Assembly (NCBI GenBank): GCA_949361645.1
Contig: OX442435.1
Location: 5,256,220-5,320,219 of the forward strand
Reading direction: 5' to 3'
DNA: 64,000 bases
From: Spongilla lacustris
Taxonomy: Eukaryota > Porifera > Demospongiae > Spongillida > Spongillidae
Below are positions 1 through 57,026 of the stretch, piece after piece. Below the pieces are notes generated by a model that saw nothing but the letters and a program-made list of their open reading frames with translations, made no database searches and was not told where the DNA came from. The position numbers and the translations under genes are program-made. Within the stretch, counting starts at the first letter, position 1, and each line of letters begins with the position of its first letter.

Positions 1-1036
1 GGGAGGGAGGGAGGGAGGGAGGGAGGGAGGGAGGGAGGGAGGGAGGGAGGGAGGGAGGGAGGGAGGGAGGGAGGGAGGGAGGGAGGGAGGGAGGGAGGGA
101 GGGAGGGAGGGAGGGAGGGAGGGAGGGAGGGAGGGAGGGAGGGAGGGAGGGAGGGAGGGAGGGAGGGAGGGAGGGAGGGAGGGAGGGAGGGAGGGAGGGA
201 GGGAGGGAGGGAGGGAGGGAGGGAGGGAGGGAGGGAGGGAGGGAGGGAGGGAGGGAGGGAGGGAGGGAGGGAGGGAGGGAGGGAGGGAGGGAGGGAGGGA
301 GGGAGGGAGGGAGGGAGGGAGGGAGGGAGGGAGGGAGGGAGGGAGGGAGGGAGGGAGGGAGGGAGGGAGGGAGGGAGGGAGGGAGGGAGGGAGGGAGGGA
401 GGGAGGGAGGGAGGGAGGGAGGGAGGGAGGGAGGGAGGGAGGGAGGGAGGGAGGGAGGGAGGGAGGGAGGGAGGGAGGGAGGGAGGGAGGGAGGGAGGGA
501 GGGAGGGAGGGAGGGAGGGAGGGAGGGAGGGAGGGAGGGAGGGAGGGAGGGAGGGAGGGAGGGAGGGAGGGAGGGAGGGAGGGAGGGAGGGAGGGAGGGA
601 GGGAGGGAGGGAGGGAGGGAGGGAGGGAGGGAGGGAGGGAGGGAGGGAGGGAGGGAGGGAGGGAGGGAGGGAGGGAGGGAGGGAGGGAGGGAGGGAGGGA
701 GGGAGGGAGGGAGGGAGGGAGGGAGGGAGGGAGGGAGGGAGGGAGGGAGGGAGGGAGGGAGGGAGGGAGGGAGGGAGGGAGGGAGGGAGGGAGGGAGGGA
801 GGGAGGGAGGGAGGGAGGGAGGGAGGGAGGGAGGGAGGGAGGGAGGGAGGGAGGGAGGGAGGGAGGGAGGGAGGGAGGGAGGGAGGGAGGGAGGGAGGGA
901 GGGAGGGAGGGAGGGAGGGAGGGAGGGAGGGAGGGAGGGAGGGAGGGAGGGAGGGAGGGAGGGAGGGAGGGAGGGAGGGAGGGAGGGAGGGAGGGAGGGA
1001 GGGAGGGAGGGAGGGAGGGAGGGAGGGAGGGAGGGA
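1..1036. repeat. (GGGA)n tetranucleotide array, at least 1 kb
   Basis: About 259 copies of GGGA run from the first base of the window with no interruption, so the array is truncated by the window edge. Every unit gives a run of three Gs, so the plus strand is an almost ideal G-quadruplex substrate and the minus strand is polypyrimidine. Perfect identity over 1 kb suggests recent expansion or gap-filling by the assembler. Array length in an assembly is unreliable for this kind of sequence. Confidence 0.98.
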
Positions 1037-4539: not shown

Positions 4540-7500
4540 GTTGGTTTGGATTCCTACTCGTGTACTTGTGTGTTAATGGTTACATACAGTTGCTTTTCTA
4601 AAGAATAAATAAATAAATACTTGTAATGGATACCGGAAATAGTAGTACGGTTATTTGTGCTCATACGTGTTTTTACATACTGGTATGTACATGAAGGTTT
4701 TACTGCTACTAAATAATCACCACCATACACATCCGAACACTTATATTGGGAAACTCGACATCTCTGAAATGCTATTGATTTCGCTTTCATTATCAATGAG
4801 CACCGTTACAGCTCGATGATGATGGCATTACCTGTTCCCCAGTAGTGGGACAATGTGGCTGGGGTTGGGGGCTTGTGCAGGTTCATTTAGGCACCTGGTG
4901 CTGGTGGCCTGGGGATGAATTGTATCATAGATTGAAGAATACCTGGATACGAAACGCGGAGATAATTAGAAATGATCCACGTTTCGGCATGTGACACATT
5001 TGGTGTTATAGTACATACATGTATAGAGATAGCCTACCAAGGGCCAAAACTGACTTGCCGTAATACGAGCGATACGGGAGATGATTACGGACAGTAAGAT
5101 ACCTGAAACAAAGGCCAAACAGATCCTCTTAACGAGTTGCTTACAACTTTCGATACCGTTCGGTTGGTCCGTTGCTTTCAATACATTTTGCTGTGGCCGG
5201 GTTACGTTCGGCTATTCTAGCTTGTCTACATCACCCAAGAATAAAAGCACATTCAGCTAGAGAGAGAGCTTACAGATGTTTCAAACAGACACGTTTGATG
5301 GAATTGCCGCCTATTTGGAAACGCTTTTTCTGTGTCATTGGTCTGCTGTCGGATCATCAATCGCACTTACAAGGCATTTGTTCAATCAGCTACTACACAA
5401 CTTTAAGTACTATAAGTGCATTCCCTACAACTGATCATGGTAACTGCGTAGATGTGTCTAAGTGCTATCTGACCGTGCAAGAGATGTACCGAAACATATA
5501 TCGGTCCAGGGACGATTTAATGAAAATAACCCGCACAACTATAACTTCTACATGTATAAACATTTGCATAACCTTGGTCCACCTTTGGCTGTATGCGTTC
5601 CACAGAACAACTCTTTCTGAACATTGAAAAACAAATTTGGACTTTGTTGTGTGTGTCTGACTCACACACTATGTTATGAAACACGATGGGTCTGTGACCT
5701 GTTCACCAGGCAGTTGTACCCACATGCTAAAGCCCCTTACAACGGCTATACGTTCGTTCCACAGAGGGAATAGCATAATGCTTTGTTTTTAGAAATGAAT
5801 GGTTGGAAGCATCTCTAAGCTGAGATATACATGTATGTTCCGAAGAGGCGGAAATGATAGATACGGTACCTACGTAGAGTGTGCTTAGTGAATTGCATGA
5901 ACAATACATGGTGTAGTTACTAACCTGGAAAGCAAGATCAGTGGGAGTACGAAGAATGCCTAAGACCTCGATTTTTCTGTTAAACAGCAGTGAAAGTAGG
6001 GGGAAAAGCGTAATCTACAAAAGTGTTAACCGAAACACAGTTCACTTCAAAGGGTCCACCGCTTACAATTGACAATTCAACGGATCACGTGACGCGTTTC
6101 GTATCCAGGTATTCTTCAATCTATGATTGTATGCAGTGTACAAGATATGCCTACAGGCGTTTGTTTGTGTCGAATCTGTTTGAAACACTAACGTAAGATG
6201 TGTAGAAATATGCACCCATATTCAATCGTAATCACAATTGTCAGTGCTCAATTCACTCATCACGTGGTAAGGGAGCAGGGAAAAGCACACACACACACAC
6301 ACGCACAAGTCATGATACTACCCTGTAGTATCCGCAGTATCATGACCAATTTATGGAAGTGTAATTACTCCAGCGTTACTTTTATTAGTATGTGGTCTGG
6401 CCAAGGTGTATGTGTGCTGGGACCTGGGTGTGTGGAGATATTCGGGCACAGGTGGATGGCACCACATGCAGGTAACTTCAGGGCCCCTGTACATGTACAC
6501 ATACTTCAATGGTTTACAATTACTGCTTGCTGCATAATTGATTGTTTTTGTTGATGTTTGGTTATTGGTAACAACCATTAGTGTAATTGTTATCCCAGTC
6601 CATGATCTAGGAAATTATTGATAATCCTTTTAGAAATTAGTGATAACTTTTATCTTAATCTCAATGGTTGATCAAGCTCTCCAAAATCAAGCACACTGCA
6701 ACTTGTGTGATTAGTTAGCTTACAGTACAGTATTGGGTTGACCTTTGACCGTGTTGTTGAGTAGCTGATATTGTTAATTTGAAATCTGTGGGTATGCAAT
6801 TTTGATTACATGTACAGTGGTGTTCACCGAAAGAGGGGGAAAATGCAATAATGCATAATATCTCATGAATGGTATAATGGTATCATGCCAATTACATTTT
6901 TAGATTCAGCATCTATTTCTGAACAGAGTACATGTACATGTACATTCACTTTAATTCAATTATGACTTGTAAACAAAACAATGCACCATAGTAAACAACT
7001 GCTGGTCAGGTTGGATGTTCAAGGCTATAGCTCCTCTATTCTTTGCAGTTAAGCTACCAAATTTTTTTTTGTATGTACCCAATACAGGTGAGTACCTATA
7101 GTGTTGTGTTGAGCTCTTAAGTCTCACTGGCTGTGGAGATTGGTAGGAAAGTATCACGTTTCAGAGGGAGGCGTGGTCTTCGTGCAGTTTTGGACGATTT
7201 AGTTCGACTTAAGGAATGAAAAGTATTCCATTGCATTATGCAGTCCCTAGTACATGTATATATATTTTTGTATTTTATTGCGTTAATGGAACACCGATTT
7301 ATAATTGATCAAAAGCTAACAAGCTTAAAAAACGCAGCCATTTTAGTAATCCATGACGTATCACAACATTCCATAAATAGTAACTACGTCACAATCCGCA
7401 TGATGCAATACATTTACTCAAACGAATGCTTTGCTCTATATGCATGTACACACATCATAAATGTTTTATAATATGATTCAAGCAAGATCTAAATACATGT

Positions 7501-10500
7501 AGTTATTAAATGTGGGAAGAATGCACTCTTCGATGTGACTTATATAATTTTGCTTGCTGTTCTGCTGCACTGCTGCTGAATCCTTCGTTGTATCCACGCT
7601 CATACATGTAGTCCCTGCATTTGTTAAAAACTTTAGAGATTAGTTCCATATTGCAGCTTTTAAGGGCTTCAGGAACTAGAGTTCTTTGTTTGGTGATTGT
7701 ACCATTGGCATAGGCCCGTGTGTGCTGCTTTGCATGGCACCACACCCATTCAATAGGGCTTAATTCACAGTGGTATTTAAGGTAAAAGAGGCACATGTGT
7801 CCTTGTTACTCTTCTAAAATACACTTCTGTTGTGAAAAGTCTGGGAAAGAATTTAATGTACATGTACTCCTCATATCATTTCCATTCATGCAAGTTGGAT
7901 CTATGCCTCGTTCTACAAAATTTTCATACCCTTTGGCCTTCCATCTTCTAATACCATTCTTTGCACTCTGCCATTCCATGTGGTGTCTCTCATCACTGGC
8001 TGCTTACCTCCAGGACCTACATTTTTTTAGCATTTAATTGATCCTCTCCAAATTTCTTGTGGGAGGTCGAGGGAGCATTATCAAAAATAAATAGTCCTCG
8101 GGCAAATGGGTATTTGGCTTCAAATATGTTTAGTGCATTTGAAACTTGTTGCATAAGTTTATCATTATTGAAGTACCCATCTTTCTGCACTTCCAAGGTA
8201 CACCTTGCCATATTGCCTAGAAATTCCAAATATCCATTCAACTCATCTACATGTACATGTATGAAGTCTGAAGCCATTATTGATTGCCGTAATGGCTTCT
8301 GCTTAAGTACATTAGTCTAATCATCTCCCCACAAATACAGTTAGCATCAAAAGTAGACTCATCATGCACCACTCGTATAAGAGGCTTCACACCTTCTGGA
8401 CATGCAGGACTCATGTTACCAGGTACAATAGTTACCTTATCCAACTCCTTTTATGTAGCTAAAATCTTACCTCTATACTCTACTATGTCTTGTCGTTCAT
8501 GCCCATCAAAATAAATGCCCCTCTGATGATGAATACGCCTGAATCCTAGTTTATGCAGCCATCTTCTCGCAGTTGCAACAGAGATATCTGTATTGCTAGT
8601 GAAGGTCTTCATAATCCATTTGAAAAAGTTTTGAATTGTAAGATTTGGTTGTCCTTTCACACATGCATTGTTTCGGATATACACACCAGCTTTCAACTGA
8701 AATTGCTCATCATTTGTCAAGCCACATGGATGGGAGAGTGTGGAGTGCCCTCTTTCAGATGATAGAATATCTTCAATGTCATCTTCTTCAACAATAGTCG
8801 ACATGCAGCGTATCCACAACTGCATTCATGTAAAGCGTGGTCCACTTATAGATGGTTTTAGACAAATATCCAGTCACATCTGATGCTTTATCAGCCGCTT
8901 CTGACAGTTTGAAACCCCACATTGTTGCTGCAGTACTCATAATGACGATGCCTTTTGTATCTCAAAAGAAGCATTCTTTTGTATTTATGACGGTGCTGCG
9001 GAGACAGCTTTGCCAATAGTGTCTGTGTCATATTTGACCGCATCGTGAAGTGAGAAAGTTGATCTTTCGTCTGCAGCAGATGACTCCTTTTGAGAGTGGT
9101 TCATTACGATGGCTTGCAGAGCTTTCTCTTTGCATCCTCTTTTTGATGGCCACATGCTGCTTCCTGCCACTGGCACTGTCAATAGCGCTGTCATATCTCA
9201 TTTGTATCTCGTTGGCCTCTTTTCAGGAACACCCGATCTACTTGAGCACGGACCTTCTGATGCATTGGTTCTGAAAAGAACCCATGGCATCGTAATCACT
9301 GAAAATATCGCCTGAGCTGTTGCCGTCAAATGCCATCATATCCCAATAGACATTTACGTGATGTTAGCAAGTCCGATGCTTTACTAAGATTCACAAGAAC
9401 GGAACAAAATGGCTGCGTTTTTTAAGCTTTTTAACTTTTGATCAATTATAAGTTAATGTTCTCATTAACCCAATAAAATATATATATTTTTAATGTATAC
9501 ACTGGGGACTGCATAATGCAATGGAATACTTTTCATTCCTTAAGTCGAACTAAATCGTCCGAAATTGCACGAAGACCACGCCTTCCTCTGAAAAGTGATA
9601 CTTTCCTACCAATCTCCACAGCCAGTGAGACTTAAGAGCTCAACACAACACTATAGGTACTCACCTGTATTGGGTACATACAACAAAATTTGGTAGCTTA
9701 ACTGCAAAGTATAGAGGAGCTATAGCCTTGAACATCCAACCTGACCAGCAGTTGTTTATAATGGTGAATTGTTTTGTTTACAAGTCATAATTGAATTAAA
9801 GTGAATGTTCTCTGTTCAGAAATACATGTAGATGCTGAATCTAAAAATATAATTGGCGTGATACCATGTATACTATTCATGAGATATTATCGAAAATATG
9901 CATTATTGCATTTTTCCCCTCTTTCGGTGAACACCACTGTAAGTGGGCTGATTTTCCCTGTGTGGGGACCACATTTTTCTAAATTAAATATGAACATTTT
10001 AATGCTTCAGTTGATTTGGTTAATTGGTGTTCCCACGTTACAAAACCATTGCAATGAACTAAATTACTGTGGGATATCCGAAAAGCCAGCAAGTTGTTAC
10101 CGGCATGTAAGTAAACCATCAGTAAACTATCAGTAGACTATGATCAGTAAACCATCAGTAAACCATCAGTAGACTATGATCAGTAAACTATCAGTAAACC
10201 ATCAGTATACTGAACATAGATGCTGGCAACAAGTCACCTCACGTACACATGTACTTGTATGCCAATCTTTAGCCTGTTCCTGTGAGTGATGTTGCTGTTG
10301 ACAGTGATGATCACAGTTTGTGTGTATGTGGGGTGTGATGTGTGGGGTGGATATGTGGTGTGTATGTGTGGGGTGTGATGTTTGTGGGGTGTGTGTTTTG
10401 TTTAGGCCTTTGTTATTTATTTTGAAAGTTGTTATGATGGCCTTGCAGGCTAACCCTTTGGGTTTCCTTAGGTTCCCTTAGGTTTCCTTAGGTTCCTTTA

Positions 10501-13500
10501 GGTTCCATTGGTACCAGTGCAGTTGACTTAGGACATTAGTACATTAATGTGGACCCTTTTGGTCAACTGGACTGTTGTGCTTGTTAGAGAAGCTGTGAAG
10601 GCATCCAGATGTGTAATGTAATATTGGGGCTAATCGAGTAAGATGTCTAACAAGACATAATCCAGTGCAGATGGCCAGTGTCTGCTCAGAGGTGCAAGGA
10701 AGGAAGGATAGTGTTGTAAACACAGCCCTCTTGCATATGCTAACATGTGCATGTGCGTGTGTTTACAACTCCTAAACCACATTCAAATGTGCGATAATGG
10801 ATTGTCTGGTTTCATAGAGGATGTTAAAAATAAAAAGGTAGAATTGGCTATTGTAACTGGCTAACTCTAAGGCCAGGCACACACTAGGCTACATGTATAT
10901 CTAAGGCCAGGCACACACTAGGCTATATCTAAGGCCAGGTACACACTAGGCTATATCTAAGGCCAGGCACACACTAGGCTATATCTAAGGCCAGGCACAC
11001 ACTAGGCTACATGTATATCTAAGGCCAGGCACACACTAGGCTATATCTAAGGCCAGGTACACACTAGGCTACAGTGTATATCTAAGGCCAGGCACACACT
11101 AGGCTATATCTAAGGCCAGGTACACACTAGGCTATATCTAAGGCCAGGCACACACTAGGCTATATCTAAGGCCAGGCACACATCAGGCTATATCTAAGGC
11201 CAGGCACACACTAGGCTATATCTAAGGCCAGGCACACACTAGGCTATATCTAAGGCCAGGTACACACTAGGCTATATCTAAGGCCAGGCACACACTAGGC
11301 TACATGTATATCTAAGGCCAGGCACACACTAGGCTATATCTAAGGCCAGGCACACACTAGGCTATATCTAAGGCCAGGTACACACTAGGCTATATCTAAG
11401 GCCAGGTACACACTAGGCTATATCTAAGGCCAGGTACACACTAGGCTATATCTAAGGCCAGGCACACACTAGGCTACATGTATATCTAAGGCCAGGCACA
11501 CACTAGGCTATATCTAAGGCCAGGCACACACTAGGCTATATCTAAGGCCAGGTACACACTAGGCTATATCTAAGGCCAGGTACACACTAGGCTATATCTA
11601 AGGCCAGGTACACACTAGGCTATATCTAAGGCCAGGCACACACTAGGCTATATCTAAGGCCAGGCACACACTAGGCTACATGTATATCTAAGGCCAGGCA
11701 CACACTAGGCTATATCTAAGGCCAGGCACACACTAGGCTATATCTAAGGCCAGGCACACACTAGGCTATATCTAAGGCCAGGCACACACTAGGCTATATC
11801 ATCAGAGATAATTGTTTGTAGTTTTGGAAAGCAACTAAATCACTTTTAAAATACGCATGTAGTAGAGCATTTCTTTACTTTGCTCGATGGCTTCAAGCAG
11901 ACCAGGCAAGATATGGTAATCAATATTACCTAGTACATGTACATGTATGTTCTGGGCCTAGGCACAGGTGTACACAGGTGTCCATATGGGTTACATGTAG
12001 ATGGAAGAACATTGGATCATGAATAACAGATAACAGATACAGTTGTTGTGGAACTACAATGTACAGTGTACTAACTTGTACTTGTTTGGGGAACACTATT
12101 CTTTATACATGTAACTGCCCTTAAAGCAAAAATAATTTCAAAAGGGGTCAATCTCCTGTAGTGGGGTCACAATGATGTCTCATCTCAGGTATTGATGTTC
12201 CATCTCCTCCTGTACATGTACATGTACATGTAGGTGGCGGATGTGAACACATGCATATATCCATGTATCATATTGCTTATGAGCACATCTAGTTCCCCAT
12301 GAACCACATCAAACGCAGCAAGCATTTGAATGTATCGTGTACTGGCTTCCTGCTTTTCCTGTGAACTGCAAAGGGTTGTGTGTGGGGCGATCTGGGCACC
12401 ACATTTGGATTCCCTCCTGGTTGGGAGTCAGGAAAGGGGGAAAGTGCATGTACCATAAGTATTTTTACGCAAACCTTGCACAGCAAAGAACAATGACAGA
12501 TCGGACAAACGCCTACATATGGGTGTTTAGCCTACGTGTAGGCGTTCTATTGCAACCTATGGTCCTTGCATTCAATGGCGTTCAGAACTTTGAACTCGAA
12601 TGATGTAGCACTTATTAAGCATAGGGCTTCGTTTTTAATTCGCTTTGGAGCTCATTCAACTTTAGCAAGCCTACATGTAGGTTAACGCACCTATGCGTAG
12701 GCGACGATGTACAGGTATCATTAAAAGCTAAAGTTGGCATCAGAATGTCCATACTGCTTCAATATCCTGAGTGAGCTCTCTGGTTGTGGTGTATGATAGC
12801 AGAGCACAGGTGTATGATAGCAGAGCACAGGTGTATGATAGCAGAGCACAGGTGTATGATAGCAGGGCACAGGTGTATGATAGCAGGGCATAGGTGTATG
12901 ATAGCAGAGCACAGGTGTATGATAGCAGAGCACAGGTGTATGATAGCAGGGCACAGGTGTGTGATAGCAGAGCACAGGTGTATGATAGCAGAGCACAGGT
13001 GTATGATAGCAGGGCACAGGTGTATGATAGCAGAGCACAGTGTATGCATAGCAGAGCACAGGTGTATGATAGCAGAGCACAGGTGTATGATAGCAGAGCT
13101 GTATGATCGCAGAGCACAGGTGTATGATAGCAGGGCACAGGTGTGTGATAGCAGAGCACAGGTGTATGATAGCAGGGCACAGGTGTATGATACATGTACA
13201 TGTACATGTAGCAGAGCACAGGTGTATGATAGCAGAGCACAGGTGTATGATAGCAGGGCACAGGTGTGTGATAGCAGGGCACAGGTGTATGATAGCAGAG
13301 CACAGGTGTATGATAGAGCATAGGTGTATGATAGCAGAGCACAGGTGTATGATAGCAGAGCACAGGTGTATGATAGCAGAGCACAGATGTATGATAGCAG
13401 AGCACAGGTGTATGATAGCAGAGCACAGGTGTATGATAGCAGAGCACAGGTGTATGATAGCAGAGCACAGGTGTATGATAGCAGAGCACAGGTGTATGAT

Positions 13501-16500
13501 AGCAGGGCACAGGTGTATGATAGCAGAGCACAGGTGTATGATAGCAGGGCACAGGTGTATGATAGCAGAGCACAAGGCAGTCGCTCTTAGAAGTATTGCA
13601 GTTGACTTTCGCTGAATCGTTACAGATTGCACACTGTAGATACTCTATTTGGGGCTGTATTGTAGACAGATCCAGCCCAACGGTCTTGCCAGAAACAAAA
13701 TCGTGGTTAGCACTGAATACAAACTCATTCAGCTGAGTACCAGTATCTGAATGTATGGTAGCAGTTCGGATGATGTTATGGGTGTGGTTGATGAAAGGCA
13801 TTGGAGCGAGGCACCAATGTACAGTGTACTGTACTGTAGATCTTCTTCACTTAAAACAATAAAGAATCTTGGAATTGGAATGAGTGCCGTTCACTTGGCG
13901 GTTGTACCCTTTCCTGGGAATAGTATTTCATGTTTACTGTAGGCTATTTGCATGATCTCATCATGTACCTTATGCATTTCTGTCTTCTTGTAATGCTACA
14001 GTGAATGCACCACATCTTTCAAACTTTTGTGGGAAGGGCCCAAAACTATGCATGCCAACAGGTAATAATACAACAGTTTAATCTGATACATGTAGCTATG
14101 TTATTTTTATTCCTGTCTCCACAACCACACCATGACCTAAAGCTATCATAGTGAGTATGTAATGCTATGCGGAGGGCATTCCTGCTCCATCTGATGTGCA
14201 TTGCAACACATACATGTACAGTAGAACATGTTGACCAGAAAGTTGAAAATTGAATATTTAGCATTGTAACCCAGCAAAAACTGATGAGCATGTACTTGTT
14301 ACAGGTGCAAGATGGAGTTGGTATTCTTGCATAATATAATGTAATACCTTGTCTATCACTGCCAAACCACTGATCAGTGCATCTGTTTCTACCCATATTT
14401 TCTACCTGTTGTGGAATGTCCCTTGGAATCCTGTCTCTTAGAGACCTGCTCATTTGAGTTTGTTTCTGTATGTGTTTGTACATTGCACATGTGCTGTTCA
14501 GCCAGTCCTGTGTGTGTGCATTGTCAGCCATATCCTATTTCACTTTCATGTACAGGCCACCTCTGAATACTGTGTTGTTCAGTCTGGAGGTTGTAGGTGT
14601 TGTCATTGCTGTGAGGGTTTGAGGTGAAGGGTGAATGTGTGGTGTGCACATTCTTATCACAGTACCGATCATGAACCTCATGAGGTGGGTGACAGGGAGG
14701 TGGAGGTTGGAATGAAGGTCATACTGTTGCTGATCTTCATGTCACCTTCCTGTCGCTCACCTCACATCAATTCCTCAATGTTTGTGCATATTTGGGTAGA
14801 GATGTTTGTGCACATGTGGGTCTTTGAGTTGCATGTCTCATTTGTGATGGTCCTGTCGGGTAACACACGAGCACTCATTCTCACTGTTGCCCCTCCCTTA
14901 CACCCTCACTGTTGCCCCTCCTTTACACCCTCACTGTTGCCTCTCCCTTACACCCTCACTGTTGCCCCTCCCTTACACCCTCACTGTTGCCCCTCCCTTA
15001 CACCCTCACTGTTGCCCCTCCCTTACACACTCACTGTTGCCCCTCCCTTACACCCTCACTGTTGCCCCTCCCTTACACCCTCACTGTTGCCCCACCCTTA
15101 CACCCTCACTGTTGCCCCTCCTTTACACCCTCACTGTTGCCCCACCCTTACACCCTCACAGTTGCCCCTCCCTTACACCCTCACAGTTGCCCCTCCCTTA
15201 CACCCTCACTGTTGCCCCTCCCTTACACCCTCACTGTTGCCCCTCCCTTACACACTCACTGTTGCCCCTCCCTTACACCCTCACTGTTGCCCCACCCTTA
15301 CACCCTCACAGTTGCCCCTCCCTTACACCCTCACAGTTGCCCCTCCCTTACACCCTCACTGTTGCCCCTCCCTTACACCCTCACTGTTGCCCCTCCCTTA
15401 CACCCTCACTGTTGCCCCTCCCTTACACCCTCGCAATCCCTCTCCCAGTTCAGAATGTCTATTGTCTTCGACTCTAGCCTCATAAGGTTGTGGCCTGGAG
15501 TGTTATGGGCTGGAGTGTGATGTTATGGACTGGGGAGGAGTGGTCTGGGGTGGTACTAAAAGACCATTCCTCCAAAAGGACCTCACATGTATAAAAGGTG
15601 TGTTAAGGTGTGGATGTGAAAACAATTTTAATTAGCTATGATGATAGCATATCTGGGAAATGTTAGCCAATGCAATGCATCCTCTGAATACTATACAGTT
15701 GACAAGACCATTCAAAAGGACCATCCTTATTTTGGGGGGGGGGGGTGTGATGTGGCTGTTCACACCTCTACTATCTTTCCATACCTTTTTTTTTTCACCC
15801 CAAAGTATGTACATGTATCCCCCAGTGACTAAGGCTACATGTATCCCCCAGTGACGTGTGGCTAAGGCTACCTCAAATGTGAGGTCACAATAGTTTACAC
15901 AGGTTGTCTAAACTAACCTTACTACCAATCAACTTCAAAGCCATGTGGTCACTTTTATCCTTTTGCTTTTATCTGATTATGTGTGTGTATTGTGTGTGTT
16001 GTGTGTGTGTGTGGTTTGTGTTATGTGTGTGGTGTGTGTGTGTGTTATGTGTGTGGTGTGTGTGTGTGTTATGTGTGTGGTGTGTGTGTGTTATGTGTAT
16101 TACATGTACATGTATGTTTGTGGTGTGTGTGTTATGAGTGTGTGCGTGTATGTGTGCTCGCTCGACACATGTGCATTTAGATGTACATGTAGCTATACTC
16201 TGGTATGAGGTACATGTATGACTACAACCCAAAGCCATGTTATGCGCATACCTGACCTGTACCTGTACCTCTGGAGCATGCCAAAGGTGGTGTGGTTTTG
16301 TTTGTTGTTGTGGTGTTGATTAGAGCTGTTGAATGCCATTATGGTGTTACCTCTCACCTGTGTGTATGCAAGTATGTGTGTGTGTTTGTGTGTGTGTATG
16401 TGCATGTGTGTGTATGTGTGTTGTGTGTGTGTGTGTGGCTAGCTGTCCACCACACCTCCATGCCACCATACATACATGTGTGCCACCTACTTTGTATGTA

Positions 16501-19838: not shown

Positions 19839-20065
19839 GTCCTGTTTTTGTGGTGCTTGTGCGTTTCCTGTGATAATTGGTGTGACAGTTAACTTTTTAA
19901 TAACCAGTTGTACTTGTGTGGTATCCGTTAAAACCTTACAAGTGTTCCGTTCGGACTTTGTGCGGCAAACACCTGTTCCGAAACCGCTAATTTTTACTGT
20001 TGTATTGTGCCAAATTTGCGAGTCAAGCATTCTTGTGCAGCTATACCGCTAACTGGCTGGGAAAG
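19839..20065 (+). other. COPS5-Frizzled intergenic spacer (227 bp)
   Basis: This spacer must hold the COPS5 3' end and the Frizzled promoter and 5' UTR unless an upstream UTR exon exists. No canonical AATAAA or TATA box is visible. An upstream in-frame TTG at 20000 is open but non-ATG. Confidence 0.6.
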
Positions 20066-21751
20066 ATGACATTCGTCTTATTGTCGGTACTATGGGCATG
20101 TGCTGTAGCGCAGATCCTTCCCGTCGACCCGAACACTACCCCGGGCGTGTCGTGTGAATTGATAGTCAACATATCCTTCTGCAAAGGAGTCAACTACTCC
20201 CATGCGTCCTTCCCCAACTTCCGAATGCAGACAAAGCAGTCCGACGCCAACAGCGAACTAATGCAGTTCATCCTCCTTGTCAACTCGGCATGCTCGAACG
20301 CCCTGGTTCACTATCTGTGCTCCGTGTATGCCCCATTCTGCGAGGCAAGCTACCGCAAGATCCCTCCGTGTTCGAACCTGTGTACGTACGTGCGCGACTC
20401 TTGTGCCCCCAAGCTACAGGCGTATGGGATCTCATGGCCGCCACAGCTGGCGTGCGATCAGTGGCCCGCTTACGGAGCGGTGTGTTTCGGACCGCCTACG
20501 GAAAAGCTGTCTACGCTCGTCATCCCTAGCAACCCTCTCTTCAATCTACCCAATGCGACCGCGACCTCCACCGTTGCGACCACTCCCTCCTCTACTGGTG
20601 GCAATAACAGCTCCTTAGGCAGTGGCGACTGTCCCATGGGCATGAAAATCCCCGCGCAGTACTCCGAGTACACTTTCGGCGGGAAAAGCGCGTGCGCGGT
20701 GAGCTGCAGCAAGTCGCCCTACTTCAGCATCGCCGAGACGGAGAGCTCAGCCCCTGCCTTCATCCTCGTCTTCGCGATCACGTGCCTCCTCTTCACGCTG
20801 TTCACGGTCGCCACCTATCTCATCGACCGGCGCCGCTTCCACTACCCAGAGCGACCCATCATCTTCCTCTCTGGCTGCTACCTGTTCATCTCCATCGCCT
20901 ACATCGTGGGCGCTGTTTCCAAGCTGAGCGCCAGCTCGTCGTTCGCCTGCGACAGCGCCACTTCGGACGCCATGGTTGACAACCAAGCGGCCGTGTTCCA
21001 AAGGCAACCCAGCTCGTCTGCGAACGTGTACAAGCAGGCCAGCTGCATCATCCTCTTTCTATTGGTCTACTACTCCCACATGGCGGCCGCTGTCTGGTGG
21101 GTGATGCTGACCCTTACCTGGTTCCTGGCTGCCGCCCTCAAGTGGGGAGAGGAGGCTGTCGAGCGCCTGTGGGTACTGTACCACATTGTTGCCTGGAGCG
21201 TCCCCGCCATACAGGTCATCATCATTCTGGCGTTGAGGTTGGTGGATGGGGACCAGCTGGCTGGCCTGTGTTACGTTGGCAACCAAAATGTGGTTGCCCT
21301 GGCAACCCTTGTCTTCCTACCTCTCCTTGTTTACCTTGTTGTTGGGGTTGTATTCTGGGTGGTTGGGTTCGTTGCCCTCATCAACATCAGGGAGCACCTG
21401 AGCCGGGACCCGCCCAAGGCCCAAAAGCTTTGTCGTCTCGTCATGAGGATTGGTGTGTACGCGGCTTGCTACATACTCCCCAATGTTGTGCTCCTGTTAC
21501 TGCTGGTGTACGAGATTGTGCAGCGGAAGATGTGGGAGAATGCCATCGTTCAGAACCAAGGTGCACCGATGCCAAATTTTGCTGCCTTTCTTCTCAAGTA
21601 CCTGATGATATTCACAGTTGGCATAGGCTCCACCTGCTGGGTCATGACTCAGAAGACCTTTGCTGCTTGGCACAAGTTCTTTGCCAGCTGCAGTTGCAGG
21701 AGAAGTGCAAAGAAAGAGTATGAACCCTCTAAGAGCCAGTCTGTACTCTAG
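20066..21751 (+). CDS. FZD: Frizzled-family Wnt receptor, intronless
   Basis: Seven-pass Wnt receptor, 561 aa from the ATG at 20066. That start is chosen because it opens a clean signal peptide (MTFVLLSVLWACAVAQ). Residues about 30-145 form the cysteine-rich domain (CELIVNISFCKGVNYSHASF, CSVYAPFCEAS, CSNLCTYVRDSCAPKL). A Ser/Thr-rich linker follows. A cysteine-rich hinge then leads to seven hydrophobic segments from about residue 230. After the last segment comes KTFAAW, the KTxxxW motif that binds the Dishevelled PDZ domain in Frizzleds, which argues against Smoothened. The tail is short and ends QSVL, a possible class I PDZ ligand. The gene has no introns, unlike its neighbours, and the first two thirds are GC-rich. 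It may be a retrocopy, or intronless as many vertebrate FZD genes are; no poly(A) tail or target duplication is visible. Confidence 0.93.
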   Translation: MTFVLLSVLWACAVAQILPVDPNTTPGVSCELIVNISFCKGVNYSHASFPNFRMQTKQSDANSELMQFILLVNSACSNALVHYLCSVYAPFCEASYRKIPPCSNLCTYVRDSCAPKLQAYGISWPPQLACDQWPAYGAVCFGPPTEKLSTLVIPSNPLFNLPNATATSTVATTPSSTGGNNSSLGSGDCPMGMKIPAQYSEYTFGGKSACAVSCSKSPYFSIAETESSAPAFILVFAITCLLFTLFTVATYLIDRRRFHYPERPIIFLSGCYLFISIAYIVGAVSKLSASSSFACDSATSDAMVDNQAAVFQRQPSSSANVYKQASCIILFLLVYYSHMAAAVWWVMLTLTWFLAAALKWGEEAVERLWVLYHIVAWSVPAIQVIIILALRLVDGDQLAGLCYVGNQNVVALATLVFLPLLVYLVVGVVFWVVGFVALINIREHLSRDPPKAQKLCRLVMRIGVYAACYILPNVVLLLLLVYEIVQRKMWENAIVQNQGAPMPNFAAFLLKYLMIFTVGIGSTCWVMTQKTFAAWHKFFASCSCRRSAKKEYEPSKSQSVL

Positions 21752-25831: not shown

Positions 25832-28800
25832 TTAATGAGCGATGAAAGGCCCATAGAAGTCTGTCTGTTTCCGTACACGGTTTGGATACCTCTTTGGAAC
25901 CGGTATCATTCTCCTGTGGTCCTCTGGCACCGGTGCAGGCTCGGGAATTTCTGCGTGCCTCATCGCCGGATCAGGTTCGGGTAGGTCAATTTCTGGAGGC
26001 GGGGCTGCCAAATCATCGTCTTCATCCAGAAGCTGCAAACTTCTGCTTGTATGTTGTTCCACTTGATGGGCTGCCTCCCCACTATCATCATTGCTGTCAC
26101 GCTGTACCATGTTATCGCCTTCTTGGTCCAACCTGATCTTCGCTGGGCAAGGTTTAAGTCTATCAAAATGCACTATTTGCATTTTTGTGCCTCGTATTCC
26201 CTTGATCTTATAAGTGCTGTTGCCGATCCGCTCTACCACCTTGAATGGCCCCTTCCAGGGACAATGTAACTTCCGAGACAACCCTCGTGGTACAGCAGGA
26301 GAATGCAACCAGACAAGATCGCCTTGATTGAAGGGTGCCCCGTGAACCTTTTCATCGTATATAGCCTTCTGTCGTTTGTGTTCGGTCACACATCTGTCTC
26401 TCACTAGTTGATAAGAACTTTGTAGGTCTTCTTTCAACTTCTGCACATACTCTTGGACTGGAACTTCCTCAATTTTACTGCTACCATACATCAGATCAAC
26501 TGGAAGCTTCACCTGTCGACCAAACATCAGAAAGAATGGACTAAACCCTGTTGAAGCGTGAACGCTTGAATTATACGCCAGGCAAACCCTGCGTATATTC
26601 TGCTCCCAATTAGAAGGATGCTTTCCCACTGTTGTTGATAACATATCCAGCAGAGTTCGGTTAAATCTTTCTACCATCCCGTTGCCCTGTGGATGGTACG
26701 GCGTAGTGTGGGTCTTCTTTACCCCAAGAATATTGCATATCTCCTTCACCAGTGCAGATTCAAATTGCCGGCCTTGATCGCTATGCAACTGCTCTGGTGG
26801 TGAAAATCGGCAAAACATCTCATCCACGAGCTTCCTGGCTACAGTCATTGCTTCTTGGTTGGGTATACCATAGGCTTCCACCCATCTGGTGAAGTAATTT
26901 ACAGCCACCAAGACGTACTTACTTCCCTGGTCTGTTTCTGGAAGAGGGCCCATTATGTCCACACAAACTATTTGCAATGGGTATCCAGCCTGGATTGTTT
27001 GTAGACCCGCCTTCCGCTTTGGGGCAGCTGATTTCCGTGTGCAACATATAGCGCACGTTGCACAATAATCTTTGACCGCATCGGTACATCCCGGCCAATA
27101 GAAGCGCTCCTTTAACTGTTGCAGCATCTTCTCTTCGCCCAGGTGGGCAGACGTAGCCCCCTCATGAAGACTCCGCAAGACGTCTGCCTGAAATTCAGTC
27201 GGGAGCACAAGCTGAAGGTCGGATTCATTTCCGCCAAGTCTCCTTCTCCACAGAATACCATTTTTAATGCGAAGAGATTCCCATTGTTGTAGTAGTTGTA
27301 GTAACAGGCGACTCTCTCGACTCCAAGACTTCGTTACATCCAGAGGGGGTTGGTGCCCATTCTGCACCGCAAGGTACACTGGCTGGATCTGATCGTCATC
27401 AAGTTGATGATGCCCCATGTTTCCAGGATCTTGTGACACAGGTAGGGGAACGAGAACCCCTACAGTTTGCTCATCATCCGACAATAACTCCTTCCGAGTC
27501 ACGCAATATCGCCTCTCAGGTCGGCTCAATGAGCGACTGGCATACGCAGTAACCACTTCAGAGCCATCATCCTTCACCTGCGACAGAACAGCTCCAATGC
27601 CAGTATCACTGGCGTCCGTGTCCAGCACGAATCTCCTACTATAGTCTGGGTAGGAAAGGACAGGGGAAGAGACCAAACATGCACGCAATTTATCAAAGGC
27701 ATGCTGACACTCTATGGTCCATTCAAAATTGCTATTCTTCTCAGTGAGACGCTGAAGTGGTCCAGCAATGGCTGCAAAATTCTTCACGAATCGTCTGTAG
27801 TAGTTCGCGAGTCCTAGAAATTGCTGCACTTCTCGTCGGGACTGTGGGGTGGGCCATTTTGCAACTGCCTCCGTTTTGCTCGGGTCGGTGGTGATTCCCT
27901 CGGCTGACACAATATGTCCAAGAAAGGCAACACGTTCCTTGCAGAGACGACACTTTCCTGGTTTCAGCTTCAGCCCCGCCCCCCGGAGCCTTGCAAGAAC
28001 GCCACCGATATTGGACAGGTGGTCTGCAAAGGATGTCCCTACTACCATAATTCGTCGAAGTACACAAGGCAGGTAGACCATTTCAGACCACTCAGAACTC
28101 GATCCATTAGCCGCTGGAAAGTGGCGGGTGCGTTGCATAGCCCGAAAGGCATTACACGAAATTGGAATAATCCTTCCGGTGTGGTGAACGCCGTCTTGGG
28201 TTGGTCGTTCTCAGCAACTTCCACCTGCCAGTAGCCACTAGCAAGATCCAGCGTCGAGAAGTATTTCGACCCGACAAGAGTGTCCAATGTATCGTCCACT
28301 CGCGGTAGCGGGTACGCGTCCTTCCGTGTGACTTCATTCACCTTCCTGTAGTCGATACAAAATCTGGTGGACCCATCCTTCTTCTTTGCGAGGACCACAG
28401 GTGAGGACCACGGGCTTTCCGAATGCTGAATGGCTCCTTGGTCTAGCATTTCTTGAATGAGTCGTTTCACTTCATCCCTGCGAGCCTGTGGAATGCGGCG
28501 AGGAAGGAGGTGGACTGGTTGAGCATCGCCAGTGTTGATATGATGCTTCGTCACTGCGGTTCGACCCAGTTCACCGCTGCTGAGAGAGAACACATCAGAG
28601 TATTCCATCAAAAGTGCATACAGCTGCTCCTTTTCAGCGTCACTAGTGTAGTTCCCAGATTCACACACCATCTTCCACAAGGTTGACTGGTCTTCTTGCG
28701 ATAAATTAGACTTCTTACTAATTGCTGAGACATTGACAGTGCAGTCGTCGTCGATAAGCTCCATCTTTGCCAAATGCACTCCTTTGATAAGAACGACCTC

Positions 28801-29568
28801 TTCATCGCGTGGGTTAAGTACACGTACGGGAACCAGGCCATTTCTGCTGGGACATACCAACCTTCTAGCAACAATCACTCCGAGCCGACTGGAAACATCA
28901 CTCTCAACGAACCATGTACCCCCGGTAGCTCCACTTGTCTGCTTCACCATCAGCTCCATTTCACTGCTTGGCGGTACCACAATTTTCTCCGCAGTCAACA
29001 GCCCGACAGTCTCCCCGAGGGCAGCTGCAGTGTGAGAGCTAGGGCGGCACTGGATCTGCACAGATGGACCGTCACGTGGAAAAGCCAGGAGCTTTCTACT
29101 GCAGTCGATCAGACATTTATGCTCTTCTACAAAATCCAGCCCAAGGATGGCTTCGTGAACGGTGAGGTCACTGGTAACAATGAGCATCACATCCAGTGGC
29201 ACATTCCAGCCTTCCAGAAACACCTGAAATTTCCCGAAGCCCCTCACAGACAATGGGGAACCGTTGACACCAACCAGTCTCTTGCCCTTCCACTCTTGGA
29301 GCCGCGGTCCCCCTGGTGATTCTTTGGAGATCCGGTTCCAGACATCTTCACGTATCAGCGACACGGCGGCTCCAGTATCTAAAACAAATTCAACAGGAAC
29401 AGACAAAATTGCACCCTTAATACAATAGCTACTTCCACATGACACAGACAGGGTAGGTACAATGACAGGACTTTCTTTGGCCTTTAGGCGTTGTCCCTCG
29501 AGTGGTTGGCCTTTACCATCGAGGGGCTGGAGTTTCCCGACTGCTGTTCGACTCCACGACTCCGGCAA
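25832..29568 (-). pseudogene. Gypsy pol (protease, RT, RNase H, integrase), frameshifted
   Basis: First part, 29568-28042. An aspartic protease DTG lies in VEFVLDTGAAVSLI. Then come RT fingers and palm with SPVVLAKKKDGSTRF, DLASGYWQ and VMPFGLCNAPATFQ. A one-base deletion shifts the frame inside the catalytic RT box (about 28050). Second part, 28138-25832. It holds the rest of RT, the start of RNase H (LDTDASDTGIGAVLSQ), an abrupt jump after RKELL where most of RNase H is missing, then integrase with an HHCC zinc finger, the D,D-35-E core (CVDIMGPL, LHSDQGRQFES, NGMVERFNRT) and a GPY/F-type tail (GPFKVVERIGNSTYKI). No chromodomain recognised. It should not make an active polymerase as assembled. 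Confidence 0.92.
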
Positions 29569-30373
29569 AAACGCGCTATGTGTCCCTTTCTACAACAGGT
29601 CCAGCATGTCTTTGCGGTAGCCCACTTTTTCCTCTGCTCCGCGTCCACGTACTGCCTCGGGCTTCCCTTTTCGCTGTCCATGCGCAGCTCCAAATGGTGC
29701 AGCCTTTCATTCAGTGCCTTCAAAGTTTCAGTCAGTGAGTCGTCTCCTCCACGGGAAGTATCTGCACGAGGTGTAACCACAGCCACAGCTGCAGCGTTAC
29801 ATTCCTGCACGCTGTCTGGTAGGGGAACTGTAGCGCTAACTCGTAGGACATCAGCAGTTGTAAGATATGACTCCAGCTCTATCGTCGCAATGACAGCATC
29901 CTCGACTGTCTTTGGGCCCTAGCCTTCTGCTTTACCCCGAATGCGACTTGAGGGTTTCCTATTTCTGTCAGAAACTGGTTCAAGGCGAGGCGCTCTCTTG
30001 CTTTGTCTTCTAAGTCTCCGTAGGCCTTGTCCGCAAGTACCTTCAAGGCATCACCAAACGACGCCCAGTCCTCGTCTTTTCGCCTCTTTCTCGAATGAAG
30101 TTCCGCTACGTACAGCTCACGCTTGCTGTCAGGGTTGAAACGCTTGTTAAGGGCTACCATAGACTCACTAAATTTCTCTCTGACAGCTCCCGGGAACCTC
30201 ATGAAGGCGGTTTGGGCCTTCCCCGTCAGTCGTACGCGCAGCCATTTCAATTTGTCATCTTCCCTCTCCCACTTGTTGACGATAGCTACGTTTTCGAAGT
30301 GTGCCGCCCACTCTGGCCAGCTCCCTGTCACACCGTCGTACGGTTCAGGCAGCACCAGCGGTCGCTGTGCCAT
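29484..30373 (-). pseudogene. Gypsy gag with one frameshift
   Basis: ATG at 30373 lies just after the 5' LTR. The capsid-like part (WPEWAAHFENVAIVNKWERE, LRVRLTGKAQTAFMRF) runs to about 29925, where the frame shifts. The following frame continues through a conserved gag segment (TVEDAVIATIELESYL) to a CCHC zinc knuckle (CWTCCRKGHIARFC, CX2CX4HX4C) and stops at 29484. The overlap with pol in a third frame (29568-29484) could be a normal programmed frameshift site; the mid-gag shift is probably damage or a sequencing error. Confidence 0.88.
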
Positions 30374-30379
30374 GTCGTC

Positions 30380-30395
30380 TAGCCGACTACGCCAA
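30380..30395 (-). other. Putative primer-binding site of the gypsy element
   Basis: The minus strand directly after the 5' LTR reads T then TGGCGTAGTCGGCTAG. TGG at this spot is what pairing with a tRNA CCA end requires. The tRNA is not identified. Confidence 0.5.
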
Positions 30396-30541
30396 TGTGA
30401 CGAGATAGCGTGGTAGCAACTTAATAGCAGCAAGTTGCAAGTATATAGAACTGACTAACATAAGAAAATATAGACTATATATGCACAAGCAGTCTGTCAC
30501 CTGATTCCATGGGTTCAATGCGCAAGCGCGTACTCATTACA
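30396..30541 (-). repeat. Gypsy 5' LTR (146 bp)
   Basis: Upstream LTR of the minus-strand element, presumably with its promoter. One mismatch to the 3' LTR. Confidence 0.95.

Positions 30542-31297: not shown

Positions 31298-57026
<25,729 letters not shown>

What the first reader, a model, noticed from the sequence alone, without database searches (positions are those of the whole stretch)
6815..9939. CATGTA units inserted at TA in one TIR but not its partner: candidate Tc1/mariner excision scars
The two TIRs of this element were identical at birth, so each gives the other's empty site. At 9823-9830 the right TIR reads TA + CATGTA + GATGCTG (plus strand), where the left TIR has only TA (6914-6915). 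At 6929-6942 the left TIR reads TA + (CATGTA)2 + CATTCAC, where the right has no such insert. Both are exact multiples of 6 bp at a TA. Tc1/mariner transposases cut inside the element ends and leave TA, a few terminal bases of each end, and TA. For an element ending CA...TG with a 2-base stagger that footprint is TACATGTA, which I recall as the classic Tc1 scar in C. elegans. A new insertion into a scar would give TACATGTACATGTA. This would explain a very abundant genomic motif as transposition scars.
Basis: partly seen in the sequence, partly recalled or inferred. Interest (0 to 1): 0.9.

Follow-up and report, generated by a model that had tools for sequence, protein, structure and literature searches.

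The report
Transposon excision scars flooding sponge genome
In what is very probably the freshwater sponge Spongilla lacustris, the short word TACATGTA, found about once per 1,100 bases, looks mostly like the healed cut left where a jumping gene once sat and jumped out, so the genome may carry some 200,000 datable scars of past jumps.

Summary
At 9823-9830 and 6929-6942 one arm of a TA-flanked inverted-repeat transposon carries CATGTA or (CATGTA)2 after a TA where relatives have only the TA. Genome-wide, 135 arms match the empty first site with exact flanks; the only inserted arm with those flanks is the window's; likewise at the second site. Two more inserts lie inside the element (7859, 8248); one adds His-Val-His-Val to its broken transposase, absent from 29 of 29 homologues with that motif. 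In unselected stretches, 5 of 13 distinct 6-bp indels are CATGTA at TA. The genome holds 224,449 TACATGTA against about 18,000 expected. Length variants cluster at the CA|TG junction: TACANTGTA 31,050 against 15,246 for its reversed control. Young copies have none (0 in 18 elements, about 19 expected). Excision of TA-inserted elements ending CA...TG, keeping both 2-nt overhangs, should leave exactly this. Direct proof is missing: one site was seen with an element, with a bare TA, and with TACTTGTA, one base off the canonical scar, about what chance would give. Some motifs arise by substitution.

The parts
6815..9939 (.). TA-flanked inverted-repeat transposon, ends CAGTGG...CCACTG, long arms, degenerate transposase on the minus strand
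   Evidence: arms; TA at 6813-6814 and 9940-9941; relatives; transposase pieces; homologues
9825..9830 (.). CATGTA inserted after TA 9823-9824 in the right arm
   Evidence: 135 empty and 1 inserted with exact flanks genome-wide; arms of L044-L047 lack it
6931..6942 (.). (CATGTA)2 inserted after TA 6929-6930 in the left arm
   Evidence: majority GAGTACATT; only inserted copy genome-wide with these flanks
7861..7866 (.). CATGTA inserted after TA 7859-7860 inside the element
   Evidence: L045 has the empty site
8250..8261 (.). (CATGTA)2 inserted after TA 8248-8249, adding HVHV in frame to the broken transposase
   Evidence: L045 empty; translation; 29 of 29 homologues with the SDF motif lack it
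7251..7258 (.). TACATGTA of unclear origin: one L044 arm shares it, other arms differ in several ways
7494..7501 (.). TACATGTA, no homologous stretch to test it
7603..7610 (.). TACATGTA, no homologous stretch to test it
6807..6814 (.). TACATGTA whose last TA is the left target-site copy of the element
10859..11800 (.). 28-bp minisatellite (GGCTATATC...): 5 units read GGCTA-CATGTA-TATC (10890, 11008, 11301, 11475, 11677), probably one event copied with the array; one unit (11070-11078) reads TACAGTGTA
13191..13210 (.). TA plus (CATGTA)3 in one unit of a 21-bp minisatellite (12788-13574); most other units read GATAGC there
55410..55473 (.). CATGTA array (nine whole units after a TA), probably secondary tandem expansion
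40039..42768 (-). second candidate source element: TA, CAGTCTGCCC..., TA; degenerate DDE_1 transposase
42876..45770 (-). third candidate source element: TA, CAGTC...GACTG, TA, with an open DDE_1/HTH_Tnp_Tc5 transposase frame at 43212-44879

Best explanation
TACATGTA in this genome is mostly the footprint of cut-and-paste excision. An element ending 5'-CA...TG-3' inserts at a TA and duplicates it (shown for one family). Its transposase cuts exactly at the 3' ends and two bases inside the 5' ends, leaving 3' overhangs CA and TG on the host DNA (inferred from the biochemistry of the superfamily). End joining keeps both overhangs, turning TA into TA-CA|TG-TA, a net gain of 6 bp (the product is shown, the event inferred). 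Bases sometimes added at the junction give TACANTGTA and longer forms. Re-insertion next to a scar followed by excision, or later slippage, would give (CATGTA)n. Scars then decay by point mutation.
For: Insertion at bare TA in sister copies and by protein homologues. In L021, 1 scar against 8 of 8 fetched relatives without it. TA duplication: 18 of 18 delimited copies lie between TA and TA and begin CAGTGG; 17 end CCACTG and L043 CTACTG; L041 and L042 are one duplicated locus; empty sites with a single TA. Excess 224,449 vs 17,946. Among TA-N4-TA words CATG is the extreme outlier (z 63; next, TATA, 16). Extra bases concentrate at the CA|TG junction: +1 2.4-fold, +2 2.5-fold, +3 1.9-fold, against 1.2-1.6-fold for one base at the other gaps; whole genome TACANTGTA 31,050 vs 15,246 reversed control. 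One-step derivatives 305 vs 165, against 0.84-1.32-fold for neighbours of ten control words; transitions 2.0-3.3-fold. None in 18 young elements (about 19 expected). 7 of 113 exact element ends directly follow TACATG, against 1.2-1.6% of TAs. A at -3 from TA is enriched at scars and at element insertions. One element site exists with element, bare TA, and TACTTGTA.
Against: No locus was found with an element in one copy and the exact scar in another. Of 41 matches to relatives of 6 of 10 element sites (40 of 130 candidates scored), 24 were read: 2, near-identical, have TACTTGTA at the element's TA, 2 a CAGTG duplication, the others no such insert; the 17 unread show no +6 by length. About one scar-like coincidence was expected by chance. 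The whole flank profile of scars and of this family's insertions did not correlate beyond chance (177 of 2000 and 495 of 2000 random draws as good). One-overhang and 3-nt footprints are hardly enriched (TATGTA 1.08-fold, TACAGTA 1.17-fold). In one search, 16 of 61 motif sites had a sister differing by substitution. In satellite L017 the motif arose by substitution, and 2 of the 7 elements next to TACATG sit in that satellite. Multi-unit runs, 29 of 242, exceed independent hits. The family with intact ends is small, so other families must account for most scars.
Confidence: 0.8

Rival explanations
1. A hexamer microsatellite: TACATG units are born and multiplied by replication slippage.
For: 29 of 242 runs have two or more units and one has nine; the L019:230 pair differs from one unit to two.
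Against: 213 of 242 runs are single units. Empty sites have one TA and no seed for slippage. Slippage does not predict extra bases at the centre of the palindrome.
Confidence: 0.07
2. A selected sequence, such as a binding-site palindrome, arising and kept by point mutation.
For: One satellite shows origin by substitution (most units TGCATGTA, one TACATGTA). 16 of 61 aligned motif sites have a sister that differs by substitution. Palindromes are common binding sites (general knowledge).
Against: The clean, polarised differences are whole 6n insertions at TA. One-step derivatives are in excess with a transition bias, as in neutral decay. It also occurs inside a dead transposon and minisatellites.
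Confidence: 0.05
3. Another DNA-repair or insertion process adds CATGTA at TA without a transposon, such as templated end joining or a tiny mobile unit.
For: No exact filled-to-scar pair was seen (one search gives only a near one). The flank profile does not fully match the one family examined. The one-overhang footprint is missing.
Against: The sequence is what two CA/TG ends at a duplicated TA give, the variable bases sit at that junction, and TA-flanked CAGT...ACTG elements are present (three in this window).
Confidence: 0.08

Closest known systems
Tc1 excision footprint of C. elegans
   Same: Imprecise end joining after excision leaves a short insertion (PMC13148408, passages)
   Different: That paper gives +4 as typical in soma (78%, citing Eide and Anderson 1988); here the product is +6 and TATGTA/TACATA are hardly enriched. 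The equation of TACATGTA with Tc1 is recalled, not read.
Sleeping Beauty, Frog Prince, ZB and Passer footprints
   Same: TA target, overhang bases flanked by the duplicated TA (PMC3878927, PMC7913693, PMC9976928, passages)
   Different: Listed as C(A/T)GTA for SB and Frog Prince, 0-3 bp for ZB, 0-4 bp for Passer; here both 2-nt ends are nearly always kept, and TACAGTA/TACTGTA is hardly enriched (1.17-fold)
Stowaway MITE footprints in Triticeae
   Different: A handful of diverse footprints at one intron; here one main form at about 200,000 places
IS630-Tc1-mariner elements with a DDE_3 transposase
   Same: TA duplication, CAGT ends, inverted repeats, HDESTF...FDNAPS...SPIE motifs in homologues
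   Different: The second D and the E lie 111 residues apart in 17 of 21 homologues where the script measured it (two of the other four matched a wrong DN), far more than the 34-41 of textbook families (recalled)

Membership tests
Cut-and-paste excision footprint | Insert lies at the target TA with the TA duplicated | tested here: met
Cut-and-paste excision footprint | Insert is made of terminal bases of resident elements (CA...TG) | tested here: met
   Ends CAGTGG...CCACTG; CAGTC ends of two more elements
Cut-and-paste excision footprint | Length variation at the joining point | tested here: met
Cut-and-paste excision footprint | Same site known with the element and with the scar | tested here: inconclusive
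   One site seen with the element (L033), with a bare TA (L082, L085, L086, L088, L089) and with TACTTGTA, one base off canonical (L078, L079, near-identical); about one such coincidence expected by chance
Cut-and-paste excision footprint | 2-nt staggered cleavage by the transposase | not testable with these tools
   Needs biochemistry
Tc1/mariner-type element (6815-9939 family) | TA target-site duplication | tested here: met
   18 of 18 delimited copies; empty paralogues with a single TA
Tc1/mariner-type element (6815-9939 family) | Inverted repeats beginning CAGT | tested here: met
Tc1/mariner-type element (6815-9939 family) | DDE/D transposase related to DDE_3 | tested here: met
   32 homologues, 8 of them carrying PF13358; Pfam found no transposase match in the broken copies themselves
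Tc1/mariner-type element (6815-9939 family) | Short D-to-E spacing of classic families | tested here: inconclusive
   111 residues in 17 of 21 measured homologues; spacing varies in the wider superfamily (a listed title names a DD82E group)

The most novel reading that the evidence does not exclude
Excision footprints are a leading source of small insertions in this animal: about 200,000 scars, some 1.2 Mb of added DNA, have made a healed transposon cut the most over-represented TA-N4-TA word of the genome. Because sponges set aside no early germ line (general knowledge), somatic-type end joining of excisions in totipotent cells would be inherited, where in a worm it is lost with the soma. The six-base insert keeps the frame and adds no stop in any frame, so excision would also be a mutator that adds pairs of codons.
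Probability: 0.4. Interest if true: 0.88.

Novelty: new variant of a known kind. Interest (0 to 1): 0.72.

Why it matters
Excision is normally invisible in a reference genome; insertions are counted and departures are not. If a fixed six-base scar marks a departure, the history of a genome's cut-and-paste elements can be read from a word count, and the scars can be dated by their decay. The choice of repair path after transposon excision in an animal without an early germ line becomes testable from public assemblies. It would also explain an over-represented palindrome that motif searches could mistake for a regulatory element.

Tried and rejected
Microsatellite birth and selected-motif readings were weighed and rejected (see rivals). 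A test by correlating whole flank profiles was inconclusive. A scan for TA-flanked inverted repeats in the sample was swamped by tandem repeats. A search for scarred versions of element sites found one near-scar and otherwise unscarred sites. A pattern for one TA of the L021 repeat was too strict: 31 places, 29 empty, 2 with other inserts, none CATGTA. Pfam on the broken transposase copies gave no transposase match. Rfam found nothing in the window at gathering scores. TACATGTA is in 290 papers; of the 30 listed, one was opened and its hits were repair oligos. TACATGTA, transposon and footprint together are in 2 papers, by title unrelated. Five other searches listed no title reporting a genome filled with such scars; they showed 20 of 1,018, 11 of 11, 15 of 409, 12 of 24 and 8 of 8 papers. 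The library lacks most subscription journals.

Expected counts depend on the model: the genome-wide figure of 17,946 comes from an order-2 model trained on data that include the scars; trained without them the expectation is lower (9.1 per 209 kb). Rows dropped: L017 (satellite); tandem arrays; L032 and L034, which have one end only, before the count of 18 elements; flanks resembling CATG in the second half. In one search the 39 rows of 6-bp gaps were merged by hand into 19 sites (13 in the unselected stretches, 5 of them CATGTA at TA); the 41 rows of 12-bp gaps into 6 sites, 2 of them CATGTA units. The 9822 case was assigned by eye and is flagged.

They were fetched and read.
Full report
Where the window comes from. 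The window lies in a 248.56-Mb assembly of 51 contigs, at C22:5256220-5320219. Its Frizzled gene (20000-21751, Pfam Frizzled and Fz) is 78% identical to a protein whose source name is Em0012g384a, read here as Ephydatia muelleri, and 96% identical to an unnamed one. The published Spongilla lacustris assembly is 248.7 Mb with a longest scaffold of 31.14 Mb (PMC12141999, passages); contig C1 here is 31.13 Mb. The organism is therefore very probably Spongilla lacustris, by inference.

The observation. The main matching blocks of the two arms are 89-97% complementary. The right arm at the second place reads AACATT, so the clean comparison comes from relatives. Genome search found 332 candidate matches to the arm, 40 of them scored. 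Twenty places were fetched; 18 elements could be delimited, about 1.25-1.27 kb long, 8 to 79 substitutions from their majority, all between TA and TA and beginning CAGTGG, 17 ending CCACTG; two are one locus duplicated; 2 further places have one end only. Their majority sequence has a bare TA at both places. With exact flanks, the genome has 135 arms with the empty first site and one with a longer gap, the window's, reading CATGTA. For the second site the only inserted copy with those flanks is again the window's, reading (CATGTA)2.

More insertions in the same element. Against L045, the window element has +6 at the TA of 7859 and +12 at the TA of 8248. The latter lies in the broken transposase and reads [13 protein letters not shown]; of 32 homologous proteins, 29 have the SDF motif and none has HVHV. 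The motif at 7251 is unclear, and 7494 and 7603 have no homologue to compare. So 4 of 5 comparable places in this element are clean insertions of CATGTA units at a TA.

The rest of the genome. Nineteen unselected 10-kb stretches gave 176,378 readable bases. A first automatic sorting of 61 TACATGTA sites in aligned repeats gave, by site, 35 with an identical sister, 16 with a sister differing by substitution and 5 with an exact 6-bp gap, besides gaps of other apparent length, some of which are 6n gaps placed differently. Of the 16, four are one-step changes, one is the satellite described below, and the others are complex or poorly aligned. Looking at gaps instead, an all-against-all comparison of everything fetched by then, with tandem arrays masked, gave 19 distinct 6-bp indels after merging rows by hand; 7 are CATGTA at TA (5 of the 13 that lie in unselected stretches), and no other sequence recurs (positions). 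The L019 case adds a second unit to an existing one. For the L021 case, eight further copies were fetched and all eight have the bare TA. Two minisatellites in the window show the same thing: in 10859-11800 five units carry +6 and one carries TACAGTGTA; in 12788-13574 one unit carries +18. The five are probably one event copied with the array.

Abundance. TACATGTA occurs 224,449 times in the genome, against about 17,946 expected. Among TA-N4-TA words in 209 kb of unmasked sequence, CATG has z = 63 and the next, TATA, 16. Of 242 runs in the sample and window, 213 are single, 24 double, 4 triple and one has nine units. The motif is absent from the Frizzled frame, the gypsy-like retroelement frames (25832-30433) and the 43212-44879 transposase frame (0 against 2.6, 6.8 and 2.4 expected), and from the 18 young elements (0 against 19). 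This suggests that it accumulates with time rather than being built in.

Mechanism. In this superfamily the transposase cuts exactly at the 3' ends and two to three bases inside the 5' ends (PMC2170065, abstract and passages), and end joining leaves the overhang sequence between the target duplications (PMC3878927, passages). With ends CA...TG and a 2-base stagger that is TA-CA|TG-TA. The model predicts that repair variants sit at the CA|TG junction. One extra base is enriched there (22 against 9.2) but less at the other three gaps (17/13.3, 18/15.2, 21/13.1); two extra bases give 24 against 9.7 and three give 18 against 9.6. Genome-wide, TACANTGTA occurs 31,050 times against 15,246 for the reversed control and 15,279 expected. 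The excess, about 15,800, is some 8% of the excess of TACATGTA; single-base insertion mutations of old scars would have to be as frequent as substitutions to explain it (inference). One sister-copy case of TACAATGTA at a bare TA was also seen (L019:9664). One-overhang and shortened forms are hardly enriched (0.9-1.2-fold).

Decay and re-use. One-step derivatives of TACATGTA number 305 against 165 expected; neighbours of ten control words run 0.84-1.32-fold. The four transition types are enriched 2.0 to 3.3-fold; of eight transversion types one reaches 2.3-fold and seven lie between 0.8 and 1.8. That fits neutral decay, though part of the TGCATGTA excess may have another cause. Of 113 element ends with exact sequence, 7 directly follow TACATG, against 1.2-1.6% of TAs in the sample (P 0.0005-0.002). 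Two of the seven lie in the same satellite, where most units read TGCATGTA and the motif arose by substitution, and one (L027) in a tandem array whose units each carry the motif, so the independent count is smaller. Re-insertion beside a scar, followed by excision, would give the double units; slippage may add to them.

Flanks. Position -3 from the TA is A in 51% of scar flanks and 56% of element flanks against 32% of all TA flanks; the excess remains (39% and 50% against 26%) when flanks resembling CATG are removed. T at -1 is depleted at scars (12% against 25%) and less surely at elements (6 of 45, P 0.08). The full profiles do not correlate beyond chance, as expected if several element families made the scars, but it is not evidence for this family in particular.

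The direct test. Ten element sites were joined and searched; 40 of 130 candidates were scored and the 41 matches fall on 6 of the sites. Twenty-four were fetched and read. At the L033 site the element sits in ...TTACGTG-TA-CAGTGCG; five relatives have the bare TA, two near-identical ones on C5 read ...TTACATG-TA-CTTG-TA-CAGTGC, a 6-bp insert at that TA one base off the canonical scar, and two identical ones carry a CAGTG duplication. This is the closest thing to an element/scar/empty trio seen. With about 1.5% of TAs scarred and decayed scars besides, roughly one such coincidence was expected among 41 places, so it proves nothing by itself. The 17 unread matches show no +6 by length. The alternate haplotype is the right test and was out of reach.

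Rate, as inference with assumed values. If a scar is lost at eight times a per-base mutation rate of 3e-9 per generation (assumed), about 200,000 scars at equilibrium need roughly 0.005 new inherited excision scars per haploid genome per generation. That is modest. The excess of one-step derivatives (140) is smaller than that of intact motifs (about 240) in the same sample, which suggests the process is recent or continuing.

Verdict. The kind of event is known; its dominance here and the near-exclusive retention of both overhangs were not met in the papers listed by the searches named under Tried and rejected.

Noticed in passing
window 6815-9939 and its protein homologues P0121-P0152: The transposase homologues have 111 residues between the second D and the E in 17 of 21 measured cases, far more than in textbook Tc1/mariner families.
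   Followed up: partly
window 42876-45770: A TA-flanked pogo/Tigger-like element with an open 555-residue transposase frame (DDE_1, HTH_Tnp_Tc5), next to a degenerate relative at 40039-42768.
   Followed up: partly
L017 (C13:3500001-3510000): A 25% GC satellite array whose units mostly carry TGCATGTA, in one unit TACATGTA; on C13 and C17 the same kind of satellite site holds an element of the window's family.
   Followed up: partly
L080 and L081 (C1): Two identical relatives of the L033 element site carry a CAGTG duplication right after the target TA; CAGTG is also the first five bases of the element. Slippage or a variant footprint.
   Followed up: no
genome sample: CATGCATG and TGCATGCA are also common among palindromes (42 and 41 in the sample), and TAGGCCTA is over-represented; not explained.
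   Followed up: no
window 1-1036: A perfect (GGGA)259 tract at the window edge, with strong GC skew in the first 4 kb.
   Followed up: no
window 25832-30433, minus strand: Gypsy-like retroelement frames with reverse transcriptase and weak protease matches, free of TACATGTA.
   Followed up: no
L041 and L042 (C9): Two copies of one duplicated locus, both carrying the same element at the same TA, flanks at least 99% identical; a third, scarred copy would be decisive.
   Followed up: no
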